22,614 bases of DNA, taken from NCBI RefSeq assembly GCF_000003605.2, contig NW_003137331.1:114730-137343 (forward strand), in the 5' to 3' direction. Positions 8,344 through 22,614 of the stretch are shown piece after piece. Position 1 is the stretch's first letter. Each line of letters starts with the position of its first letter. The notes below the pieces were generated by a model. The model searched no databases. It was not told where the DNA came from and worked only from the letters and a program-made list of their open reading frames with translations. The translations under genes and the position numbers were made by a program. Source of the DNA: Saccoglossus kowalevskii (lineage: Eukaryota; Hemichordata; Enteropneusta; Harrimaniidae).

Positions 8344-8555
8344 TACTGTAAAAGGGTAAAATTATTCACTGGGTTTTAATTTAGCTTATTTTGCTGACTG
8401 GAAAATGCGCTAAATTAAAACCCAGTGAATATGTAAAATTGATCATAGAACACATTATCTAAATGATAAAACCGTGAATTTAAAACCTACTGAATATGCC
8501 TGAAATGGTAAATCAGTGAAATTTAAACCCAGTGAAAATTAGTCATTTTACAGTA
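8344..8555. mobile_element. TACTGTA-family foldback MITE, CACTGGGTTTTAATTT subfamily, copy A
   Basis: A 212-bp non-coding element that starts TACTGTAAAA and ends TTTTACAGTA. The inverted repeats extend about 38 bp with small gaps (TTCACTGGGTTTTAATTT against AAATTTAAACCCAGTGAA). The word CCAGTGAAT and relatives recur inside in both orientations. It is about 90 percent identical by eye to the copy at 17664-17875, so both are fairly recent. TSD is uncertain. Confidence 0.88.
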
Positions 8556-10273
8556 TTTAATTTGATCTATACAAACAAAAAATCAGAATTTTTTTTAACT
8601 TTTTGATCATGATATTTGGTATCGACAACACCAAGTATAATTTTTTGTCCATGCTCAGGAGCATATTTTATTTGAACATGTTTTCACTTTACTTTTTATT
8701 TGATTTGGAGAGGGGGGGGAAGGCTTGAAATTAACTGAATCTGTTCGAAGAATGGAGTGTCGGCCTTTCAGTGTGGATTCCATTCTTTCAATGTGTCTTG
8801 TTGTTGTGCACCAAGTAGAAACAAATCACTTGTAGTTGCTCAATTCATCTCCTGTATTATCCCTTGCGTTTGTTGTATAGCAAACGGAATTCAGGGTTGG
8901 GGGGCTTTTCTTCACATCAAGCCACTCTTTTATGAAGTAGCAACTTAGACATAGGGAATTAGGTCTAATTTCCTACAAGGCCTGAGAGGGATTAGTCAGA
9001 TTCTCCACAAAAAAACATGAGGAAAGGGGGAAAAAGTGAATAACAATCACTTTTTTTAAAAAGAATTGCTCTACCTCCATGCTCTAGATGTAAATGACTA
9101 AGCCTGTCCTTTGTGCTGCAAATAAAGACCAAACTTTTGCAAGCAGGCAAACATTGTAAAAAAAAAAAATTTATAAGTCGTACATTGTTAGACATGGAGT
9201 GTTTGCAATGCTGACTCTTTGCCACAGATACCAGTGTATAGGGAGTGCTTTTGAAATAATCAACAGCAGTGGAAAAGCTGAGAACCAATCAAGAGAGTCT
9301 TTAGAGGTTGATGCAAACCAGCTGCCTGTTTCAACAGAGAGTTTTGATTGGTTCATTTCGCTGCTAAACTGTCACACATACACAGCGTCAATAAAGAGGG
9401 CTACAAATTTGAGTTGGACTATTTTTAAACAGCGCTGATAAATTACATCTGCTGTACGTGAAGCGGCTGGCAGCGAGGACTTAAAGACTCCAACAGACAT
9501 AGATTTATTTAGTTTTCAATATTCATTGCAATTTTAAAACCATAAATCAGTGTTTTTTTTATTTATACTCAAAATAACGCGCATTAATTTCTCTTCAATA
9601 ATAATTGATTCCCAGGGAGCAACAGGATGGTAGCAGCATTTTTTTTTCACAGTGTAAAGCCATCAATTTTATTAGCACAACAGAAACTCATGCAATTTCC
9701 AGCAAGGATGTCAAGGCCACAATTTCATGGAAATTTTTTCTCTGGAGATCTGTAAAAAATTGTGACCATGAGTGTTAGGATAGAGAGTCACAGACACTTA
9801 CAGCAAATGTTGTTTTTGAAAATGTCTTTGAATTTCCAAATCACAAAAAATTTCCATCGGTGAGAATGAAAGTGAATTTTATACTTTGTGGTAAATCAGT
9901 GACAGTGTACAACTCTTAAATTGTTTGCAATTTTTGTAAACCATGTAATAACAAGCAAAAATTACTTTTGTGATAAATACCCAGTAATATCAGAACATGG
10001 TGACATGTTATATAACACAGTGTGTATTTATTACAAGCACATGCAAAGATAATTTAAAAAAAAAAAAAACATTTTCCAGGTGTCTGGATGCTATTTCCAT
10101 ATGCATAACAGGAACATTCTAATATTTCTTGCTTATGTGCATGCATTTCTATCACAAACGATTATGAATTGGGAAAAAATCAGGTGCAAAATGCAACTTA
10201 TGCCTCTTGAAATTGTCAATTTCTAGTCACTAAATTTAACAAGATATGGTATTTTGTATTACAGGTTTTTTTT
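8556..10273. other. Non-coding DNA; denser block around 8750-9480
   Basis: Between about 8750 and 9480 the sequence is less AT-rich and carries several overlapping short frames on both strands (8757-8948 plus, 8992-9288 minus, 9171-9356 minus, 9199-9438 plus). None has a recognisable domain, and their overlap argues against coding. An inverted CCAAT pair lies at 9282-9354. From 9500 to 10273 it is plain AT-rich DNA with poly-T and poly-A runs. Confidence 0.5.
9282..9354. repeat. Inverted pair of CCAAT boxes
   Basis: GAACCAATCAA (9282-9292) and its exact reverse complement TTGATTGGTTC (9344-9354) are 51 bp apart. Each holds a full NF-Y type CCAATCA. They could be promoter CCAAT boxes or the arms of a small foldback. 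Confidence 0.5.
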
Positions 10274-10530
10274 AGACATTGTATAACCTTTTCACCACCA
10301 GTTCTCTATTTTCATCACAAATTCACAAAATAGTCCCATTTATAGTCGGCACTTTCCTTCGGAAGATTGGAACAAAAACAGCCAAATTTTTTGAGTAAAA
10401 ACTGAAATTGACTAAAATTTTTTCTGTTGGCTGCAAAATTAGGATTCATTTCCAGAAATATTGAAAAATATAAGAAAATAATTGCAGAAAAATTTGTGTG
10501 AGAAAGTCTGGTGGTGAAAAACAATAGTCT
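10274..10530. mobile_element. CACCACCAG-TIR MITE, copy 1 (most complete)
   Basis: A 257-bp element. The left end reads AGACATTGTATAACC then TTTTCACCACCAG. The right end reads CTGGTGGTGAAAA then ACAATAGTCT, a reverse complement with a short gap. Two further copies lie at 13699-13911 and 14734-14966. A 69-codon minus-strand frame inside (10315-10524) has no known domain and is not kept whole in the other copies, so I treat it as chance. No transposase is present. Confidence 0.85.
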
Positions 10531-11346
10531 TCAGTGGATACATGCAAATAGATTTCAAATATTTAAAAAACAATTTGTCCCTGTTCACGTAAATACACCA
10601 ATATGCCATTTTTATTAAAAATTAAGTCATCAATGGTAGGAAAAAAATGGGACTGTACTAAAGAAAATAGATGTCTCATCACTGACAATAATTTTATTCA
10701 TATTAGAGTTTTTTAGCGTGTTTTTAAGAAAAAAACTACTATAAACCACTTTCATTTTGCAAAAAAGTAAATTCTGCGAGTCAATAAAAATCAAAAAATT
10801 TCACTGGGATCCTGAAGGCACATAGTCACAGCGACTTTCGCACAGCTTTGAGCAACATTAAATCGACAAATTATGAAATTGCCTAGAAGTGGAAAATTAA
10901 ACAGTTTAGCTTACTGAAAATGACACAGTCATAGTGACATGTAATATTCAGTATAGGTCCAACTGAACATAAATTGAGTTGTATTTTCACAAAATTAAAC
11001 CAGAGCATTATTGTCTATGTAAAAAAAATTGTATTGCTTTAGAAATAACCAATTTTAAGAAGTCACTTAATACAGATGAGCATAGACAAATAAAAATTGT
11101 TGACTGTGAATTTCTAATAAAAATTAAACAAACCGTACTGATCAATAATTTGTCTGCCTTAATTTGACAAGATCATTTTTTCCTTCTACAAACACCGGTA
11201 TGCTTTTTTTTTTAATTCAGTGTATATGAAAAGCCATCACCCACACTGCTTTACTTTTTATTGGAATTGGAATATGGGTATGGATGAAATTGGATTTTTT
11301 TTTTCTCGCAACAGGCATTTGTTAGCTGCGTATTGATCGAAATGGA

Positions 11347-13698: not shown

Positions 13699-13911
13699 AG
13701 ACATTGTATAACCTTTTCATCACCAGTTCCCTATTTTCATCACAAATTCACAAAATAGTCCCATTTATAGTCTGTACTTTCCTTCAGAAGATTGGAAAAA
13801 AAAATAGCCAAAGTTTTTTAAGTAAAAACTGAAATTGACTAAAATGTTGTCTGTTGGCTATTTCCAGAAATATTGAAGAATATGAGAAAATAATTGCAGA
13901 AAAATTTGTGA
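13699..13911. mobile_element. CACCACCAG-TIR MITE, copy 2, right end missing
   Basis: Aligns with copy 1 from AGACATTGTATAACC through ATTGCAGAAAAATTTGTG, with about 15 bp missing internally after CTGTTGGCT. The right inverted repeat is absent. The tandem octamer array begins about 50-80 bp further on. Its left end faces the mirror-image end of copy 3. Confidence 0.8.
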
Positions 13912-13964
13912 AAAATGTGAAGCATTTGCTCAGTTTCAGCATGGGTATCATGGGGTATATGCAA

Positions 13965-14424
13965 TTAAGATATATTCAAATACTGAATATGCAAATAAAT
14001 AAGAAATATGCAAAAAAGATATATCCAGGTAACTTTTATACAAATAGGGTAATGCAGATATGTTGTATGCAAATAAGGTTTTTAACTACAGCATGCAAAC
14101 ACAGTATATGCAAATATGGAATATGTGTATGCAAAATAATGTGTTACATGCAAATAAGGTACATTCAAATATGGTAAATGTGTATATGCAAATATGGTAT
14201 ATGCAAATGTTACATGCAAATAAGGTATATTCAAATATAGTACATGTGTATATGCCAATATGCTACATGCAAATATGATATATGCAAATGTGGTACATGC
14301 AAATATGGTATATGCAAATGTTATACATGCAAATATGGTATATGCAAATGTGGTACATGCAAATATGGTATATGCAAATGTGGTACATGCAAATAAGCTA
14401 TATGCAAATAAGCTATATGCAAAT
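13965..14424. repeat. Tandem array of POU octamer motifs (ATGCAAAT)
   Basis: Eighteen exact ATGCAAAT words lie on the plus strand between 13989 and 14424, plus variants such as ATGCCAAT and ATTCAAAT. The left half is irregular. From 14282 to 14424 ten octamers start at exactly 15-bp intervals, alternating as a 30-bp dimer (TATATGCAAATGTGG then TACATGCAAATATGG). The octamer is the binding site of Oct1/POU-domain factors. Reading frames through it (13854-14177, 14060-14278, 14260-14463) give repetitive HANMVYAN-type peptides and are artefacts. Confidence 0.93.
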
Positions 14425-14733: not shown

Positions 14734-14966
14734 TAACCTTTTTACCATCAGATTTTCTTGTCGAAATTTGTCTGCACTTTTTTCTTCAATGTTTCTAGAA
14801 ATAAACCCTAATTTTGGAGCCAACAGACAAAATTCGAGTCAATTTTCAGATTTTACTCAAAAAATTTGGCTATTTTTGTCCCAATCTTCTGAAGGAAATT
14901 GCAGACTATAAACAGGACTATTTTGTGAATTTGTGTAGATAAAAGGAACTGGTGGTGAAAAGGTTA
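14734..14966. mobile_element. CACCACCAG-TIR MITE, copy 3, inverted
   Basis: A 233-bp element in opposite orientation to copies 1 and 2. It begins TAACCTTTTTACCATCAG and ends CTGGTGGTGAAAAGGTTA. Inner landmarks such as TTCACAAAATAGTC and CTTCAGAAGATTGG appear as reverse complements. Its outer end shares AGAAGATTGG with copy 2 where copy 1 has GGAAGATTGG, so it may be closer to copy 2. Confidence 0.83.
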
Positions 14967-17663: not shown

Positions 17664-17875
17664 TACTGTAAAAGGGTTAATTATTCACTGGGTTTTAATT
17701 TTGCTCATTTCGCTGACTGGAAAATGTGCTAAATTAAAACCCAGTGAATATGTAAAATTGAGCATAGAACACTGACATTATATAAATGATAAAACTGTGA
17801 ATTTAAAACCACTGAATATGCCTGAAATGGTAAATCAGCGAAATTTAAACCCACTGAAAATTAATCATTTACAGT
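17664..17875. mobile_element. TACTGTA-family foldback MITE, CACTGGGTTTTAATTT subfamily, copy B
   Basis: Starts TACTGTAAAAGGG and ends AATCATTTACAGT. It matches the copy at 8344-8555 along its whole length with scattered substitutions and a few short indels (for example an extra GA after GAACACT). Same orientation as copy A. Confidence 0.88.
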
Positions 17876-22439: not shown

Positions 22440-22614
22440 GTGTACACAGAACATGTACCACAGACAATATATACACCTAGCTGTGTACACAGAACATGTA
22501 CCACAGACAATATATACACCTAGCTGTGTATACAGAACATGTACCACAAGACAATATATACACCTAGCTGTGTACACAGAACATGTACCACACACACAAT
22601 ATATACACCTAGCT
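22440..22614. repeat. 43-45-bp minisatellite, four units, cut by window edge
   Basis: Units start at 22440, 22483, 22526 and 22570 (43, 43, 44, then 45 bp to the edge). Each begins GTGTACACAGAACATGTACC and ends ATATATACACCTAGCT. Units are nearly identical, so the array is young. The minus-strand frame through it (22362-22595) is a repeat artefact. Confidence 0.96.

What the first reader, a model, noticed from the sequence alone, without database searches (positions are those of the whole stretch)
13965..14424. Phased array of 18 POU octamers
Eighteen exact ATGCAAAT words occur in 436 bp, while I find only five elsewhere in the window (358, 10542, 13212, 13495, 16829). The last ten are at exactly 15-bp spacing. 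A minisatellite whose unit is a transcription-factor site could titrate POU factors, act as an enhancer, or bend and phase nucleosomes. It may also be a neutral expansion.
Basis: partly seen in the sequence, partly recalled or inferred. Interest (0 to 1): 0.75.

Follow-up and report, generated by a model that had tools for sequence, protein, structure and literature searches.

The report
Minisatellite built on POU octamer
A short stretch of DNA has been copied head to tail so that a well-known gene-regulator binding word repeats eighteen times; the array looks like ordinary repeat growth, although arrays on this word seem to turn up unusually often in the same genome.

Summary
Observation confirmed. 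Eighteen exact ATGCAAAT, all on the + strand, lie at 13989-14424; five others lie elsewhere in the window. The last eleven, not ten, stand at exact 15-bp steps.
The array is an AT-rich minisatellite grown by local tandem duplication: a degenerate left part and a regular right part with a 30-bp alternation. It sits between two opposed copies of an interspersed element with TTAA target sites, about 18 kb 3' of a frizzled-1/2/7-like ORF.
The octamer block is the least variable of 15, but 7 of 17 other array rows have an equally or more conserved 8-bp core, and in another octamer array (C766) only 75 of about 156 units keep it. No function is shown.
Unexpected: in contigs C1-C759, three clustered octamers occur at 31 loci (19 clearly tandem by eye) against 0, 2 and 6 for three frequency-matched words. 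A one-substitution control shrinks this to about threefold per background occurrence. Germline POU binding provoking duplications, transposon seeding or word composition could explain it; I could not separate them.

The parts
13959..14251 (+). older, degenerate part of the array: 7 exact and 9 one-mismatch octamers, spacing 13-30 bp; a 66-bp direct duplication (14142-14207 / 14208-14273, 91%) begins here
14252..14424 (+). regular part: twelve units at 15-bp steps (eleven with exact ATGCAAAT), linkers mostly alternating ATGGTAT / GTGGTAC (30-bp dimer), last two linkers AAGCTAT
13709..13910 (+). left flanking interspersed element, 3' end missing; shares about 17 bp of 5' flank with the copy at 10284
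14734..14966 (-). right flanking copy of the same element, opposite orientation, both ends present
10284..10522 (+). third copy of the element; a lone octamer lies just 3' of it (10542-10549), only weakly similar to the array units

Best explanation
The array is a minisatellite made by repeated local tandem duplication (slippage or unequal exchange) of a 15-bp AT-rich unit that contains ATGCAAAT. Shown: head-to-tail units, one strand, a degenerate side and a homogenised side, 30-, 60- and 66-bp higher-order repeats. Inferred: the octamer was carried along because it lay in the unit, and no POU protein needs to act at this locus. It is one of many octamer clusters in a genome rich in minisatellites, where this word seems to found arrays more often than words of equal frequency.
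For:: nested periods typical of minisatellite growth; 10 arrays with at least 8 copies in 169,534 bp not chosen for octamers, so arrays are common here; of 18 array rows, 7 of the 17 others have a best 8-bp core as conserved as or more conserved than this one (core/mean variation 0.00-0.14 against 0.18); one of the 7 is itself an octamer array (C4611); in the C766 array the octamer ranks 5 of 15, position 2 is G in 54 of 156 units, and 75 exact octamers remain; no Rfam family or tRNA in the window, and none of the 10 ORFs tested (of 18 of at least 80 aa) reached a Pfam cut-off.
Against: Octamer columns are the least variable block here (0.068 against 0.250 substitutions, rank 1 of 15) and near the top in C4611 (3 of 28) and C2512 (2 of 24). 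A simple neutral simulation with the block fixed in advance reached the observed contrast in 3 of 7,875 in-range runs over six settings; the block was noticed after the fact. The genome-wide octamer excess is not predicted by plain neutral growth; one search predicted many such arrays by chance, but direct word controls came out far below that estimate.
Confidence: 0.72

Rival explanations
1. Mutational founding by a germline POU factor: an octamer-binding protein sits on ATGCAAAT in germ cells, binding raises the rate of short tandem duplications over the site, and unrelated arrays anchored on the octamer accumulate without benefit.
For: 31 loci with three clustered octamers in contigs C1-C759 (19 clearly tandem by eye, repeat lengths about 11-60 bp, mostly unlike linkers) against 0, 2 and 6 for matched words. 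Precedent in humans: PMC8559717 (abstract and passages) reports 5-20 bp insertions at sites bound in spermatogonia that often duplicate the motif and build motif clusters.
Against: Only three matched words, with widely varying counts; the fits rest on these three values. The one-substitution union ATGCABAT gives 15 loci in C1-C532 against 25 for the octamer, so about 3-fold per background occurrence. No germline expression or binding data. The words POU and octamer have 0 occurrences in that paper's main text.
Confidence: 0.15
2. A selected homotypic cluster: the array is an enhancer, titration site or phasing element for POU factors, possibly for the frizzled-like gene.
For: Octamer columns least variable in the array; frizzled-like ORF about 18 kb away.
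Against: Conserved cores of this strength are common among the arrays examined; C766 octamers decay; the distance is large and crosses a run of N; nothing here tests activity.
Confidence: 0.08
3. Transposon seeding: mobile elements that carry octamers supplied the units, and arrays grew from such copies.
For: An element with two octamers 15 bp apart is dispersed (L001, L002, L005, L006, 87-97% alike); some loci share linkers (C513/C536, C217/C621). The window array lies between two element copies.
Against: No octamer lies inside the flanking element in the 30 loci or the 3 window copies examined; the one hit, in L010, is the octamer at 10542 just outside it. Most tandem arrays have unlike linkers by eye. 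The array itself matches other loci only at 69-76%.
Confidence: 0.1

Closest known systems
Minisatellites (tandem arrays, units about 10-60 bp)
   Same: head-to-tail units, higher-order periods, degenerate side and homogenised side
   Different: nothing structural; the unit contains an exact POU octamer
Homotypic transcription-factor site clusters formed by local duplication (PMC3188502, passages seen; PMC8559717, abstract and passages seen)
   Same: neighbouring copies of one motif with a common origin by duplication
   Different: those are tied to bound or regulatory regions; no such evidence here
POU octamer regulatory elements, e.g. the ATTTGCAT element of C. elegans aqp-8 (PMC2841177, start of abstract seen)
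   Same: same 8-bp word
   Different: that one is a promoter element bound by CEH-6; here 18 copies, no promoter or binding tested
TTAA-target MITEs of piggyBac type (type name recalled)
   Same: flanking element has 15-bp inverted ends CCTTTTCACCACCAG, a body of about 236 bp and TTAA at the ends
   Different: no transposase link was tested; the array lies beside, not inside, these copies

Membership tests
Minisatellite | head-to-tail copies of a 10-60 bp unit | tested here: met
   15-bp period at 14145-14424 and 60-bp period; unit table
Minisatellite | copy number varies between individuals | not testable with these tools
   one assembly only
Functional homotypic POU cluster | sites bound by a POU factor in vivo | not testable with these tools
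   no binding or chromatin data
Functional homotypic POU cluster | octamer conserved beyond what other arrays of the genome show for their best core | tested here: not met
   rank 1 of 15 in the array, but 7 of 17 other array rows show an equal or stronger core
Arrays founded by a word-specific duplication bias | octamer arrays in excess of frequency-matched words | tested here: inconclusive
   31 loci against 0, 2, 6 in C1-C759; 25 against 15 in C1-C532 for the union ATGCABAT, which is 1.7 times commoner
TTAA-target MITE (flanking element) | inverted ends and TTAA duplication | tested here: met
   26 of 30 loci could be scored at both ends; 7 of the 26 have perfect TTAA on both sides

The most novel reading that the evidence does not exclude
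This genome carries many independent minisatellites anchored on the POU octamer because a germline octamer-binding protein provokes tandem duplications over its own site; octamer arrays would be fossil footprints of germline POU occupancy, this array being one.
Probability: 0.15. Interest if true: 0.75.

Novelty: new member of a known kind. Interest (0 to 1): 0.4.

Why it matters
As a single locus it is an ordinary minisatellite. If the genome-wide excess of octamer arrays holds against a census of all 8-mers, it would suggest that a transcription-factor site influences where tandem repeats are born, and would make the idea of germline binding as a source of motif clusters testable outside mammals.

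Tried and rejected
Array inside one transposon: rejected; the two flanking copies are in opposite orientation and each carries its own arm, and the left one lacks its 3' end. Origin from the lone octamer at 10542: only a 28-column weak match, left open. Coding: the 123-aa frame over the array follows from 15 bp being five codons; it was not scanned with Pfam. The estimate that about 124-227 octamer arrays are expected by chance was not upheld by direct word controls (5 loci genome-wide for TTTCAAGA), so I do not use it as a null. Match totals (511, 543) are swollen by large satellites (C841 fills 92 of the 100 rows listed; C976 is large), so loci were counted by eye, merging rows within 2 kb. 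Listings stop after 100 rows, so locus counts cover only the stated contig ranges. Letters were blanked for most rows, so tandemness of control loci rests on coordinates; the 'tandem only' control counts 0, 2, 5 used are my judgement. Control words were drawn by script from 85 matched words; I took three of the first five in its order, skipping the first (overlaps the octamer) and one near-palindromic word. Two more planned controls (ATGDAAAT, TTGTTCAT) did not complete. Of nine paper searches, searches returned no paper, and the titles and abstract starts listed showed no report of octamer minisatellites; the papers themselves were not read except passages of two.

Full report
Observation. 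Shuffles of the window give 4.1 on average; other DNA of the same genome gives 23 in 168,984 bp, both strands. The regular run has eleven octamers at 15-bp steps.

Anatomy. From 13959 to 14251 the units are degenerate (7 exact and 9 one-mismatch octamers) and spacing varies from 13 to 30 bp; from 14252 to 14424 twelve units follow at 15 bp, with linkers mostly alternating ATGGTAT and GTGGTAC, hence 30- and 60-bp periods. A 66-bp segment is duplicated at 91%. This is the layout of a minisatellite with an old and a young side (inference).

Surroundings. The array lies between two copies of an interspersed element in opposite orientation: 13709-13910 (+, 3' end lost) and 14734-14966 (-). A third copy at 10284-10522 shares 5' flank with the left copy, so a local duplication is likely. 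The element has 15-bp inverted ends and TTAA at the ends: of 30 loci scanned, 26 could be scored at both ends and 7 of these have perfect TTAA on both sides. It is abundant: the first look of one search gave 2,753 candidates, of which 40 were scored. The window shows no Rfam family at gathering score and no tRNA, and none of the ten ORFs tested (of 18 of at least 80 aa) reached a Pfam cut-off. About 18 kb to the right, across a run of N, lies a single-ORF frizzled-like gene on the - strand with both frizzled Pfam domains and best PDB matches to Frizzled-7 and Frizzled-1; to the left are two fatty acid hydroxylase exons.

Is the octamer held by selection? The octamer block is the least variable of the 15 circular blocks. 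In a simple neutral simulation a block fixed in advance reached the observed contrast in 3 of 7,875 in-range runs over six settings. But the block was chosen because it stood out, and the empirical control matters more: among 18 array rows in the DNA held, 7 of the 17 others have a best 8-bp core with a lower share of variation than this array. Limits of that control: longer units offer more blocks, two pairs of rows overlap, and one of the 7 is the octamer array C4611. Of the two other 15-bp arrays, C3909 has a perfect core and C766 a weaker one. In C766 75 exact octamers remain among about 156 units, and position 2 is G in 54 of 156. Constraint is therefore not shown.

Genome-wide test. Two octamers at exact 15-bp spacing occur 126 times; part are dispersed elements. 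Three octamers with spacers of 2-32 bp occur 939 times. The 100 rows listed, C11 to C759, fall into 31 loci when rows within 2 kb are merged; by eye 19 are clear tandem arrays, mostly with unlike linkers and repeat lengths from about 11 to 60 bp. Words matched for background frequency (20-22 against 21 in 147,888 bp) give 0 (TTTCAAGA; 5 genome-wide), 2 (ATTCTTGT) and 6 (TTGATTCA) loci in the same range. The one-substitution union ATGCABAT, 1.7 times as common and rich in alternating purine-pyrimidine words, gives 15 loci in C1-C532 against 25 for the octamer, so the excess shrinks to about 3-fold per occurrence. The reversed word, which contains CpG, gave 29 matches with a background of 5. A negative-binomial fit to the three control words gives tails of 4e-5 for 31 loci and 0.002 for 19; with three values this is indicative only.

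Reading. The locus is best explained as neutral minisatellite growth. The excess of octamer arrays is an unexpected lead. A human precedent exists for duplication of motifs at sites bound in the germ line (PMC8559717, abstract and passages), and local duplication is reported as a source of neighbouring sites in flies (PMC3188502, passages). Whether the first, transposon seeding, or word composition causes the excess here is undecided.

Noticed in passing
window 10284-10522, 13709-13910, 14734-14966; L009-L038: Abundant short element with 15-bp inverted ends and TTAA target sites.
   Followed up: partly
L001, L002, L005, L006 around 1500: Dispersed element carrying two octamers 15 bp apart (spacers such as GAAAAGT, GATAAGT, GACAAGT), 87-97% alike.
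   Followed up: partly
L049 3728-6075: 15-bp octamer array of about 155 copies (C766) in which about a third of units have G at octamer position 2.
   Followed up: partly
L050 2820-4152: 28-bp array (C4611) of about 47 units with about 40 exact octamers.
   Followed up: partly
G000:C2888:147143-148864 (L060/L061): Single-ORF frizzled-1/2/7-like gene ending in ETTV.
   Followed up: partly
G000:C2888:165425-166422: About 31-bp minisatellite that stays open as a repetitive reading frame.
   Followed up: no
window 22440-22614: 43-bp tandem repeat running off the window end.
   Followed up: no
window 8351-8558 and 17670-17870: Two copies of another interspersed repeat, about 91% alike, with internal inverted repeats.
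   Followed up: no
G000:C841:38-4758: Large 38-bp satellite at a contig start.
   Followed up: no
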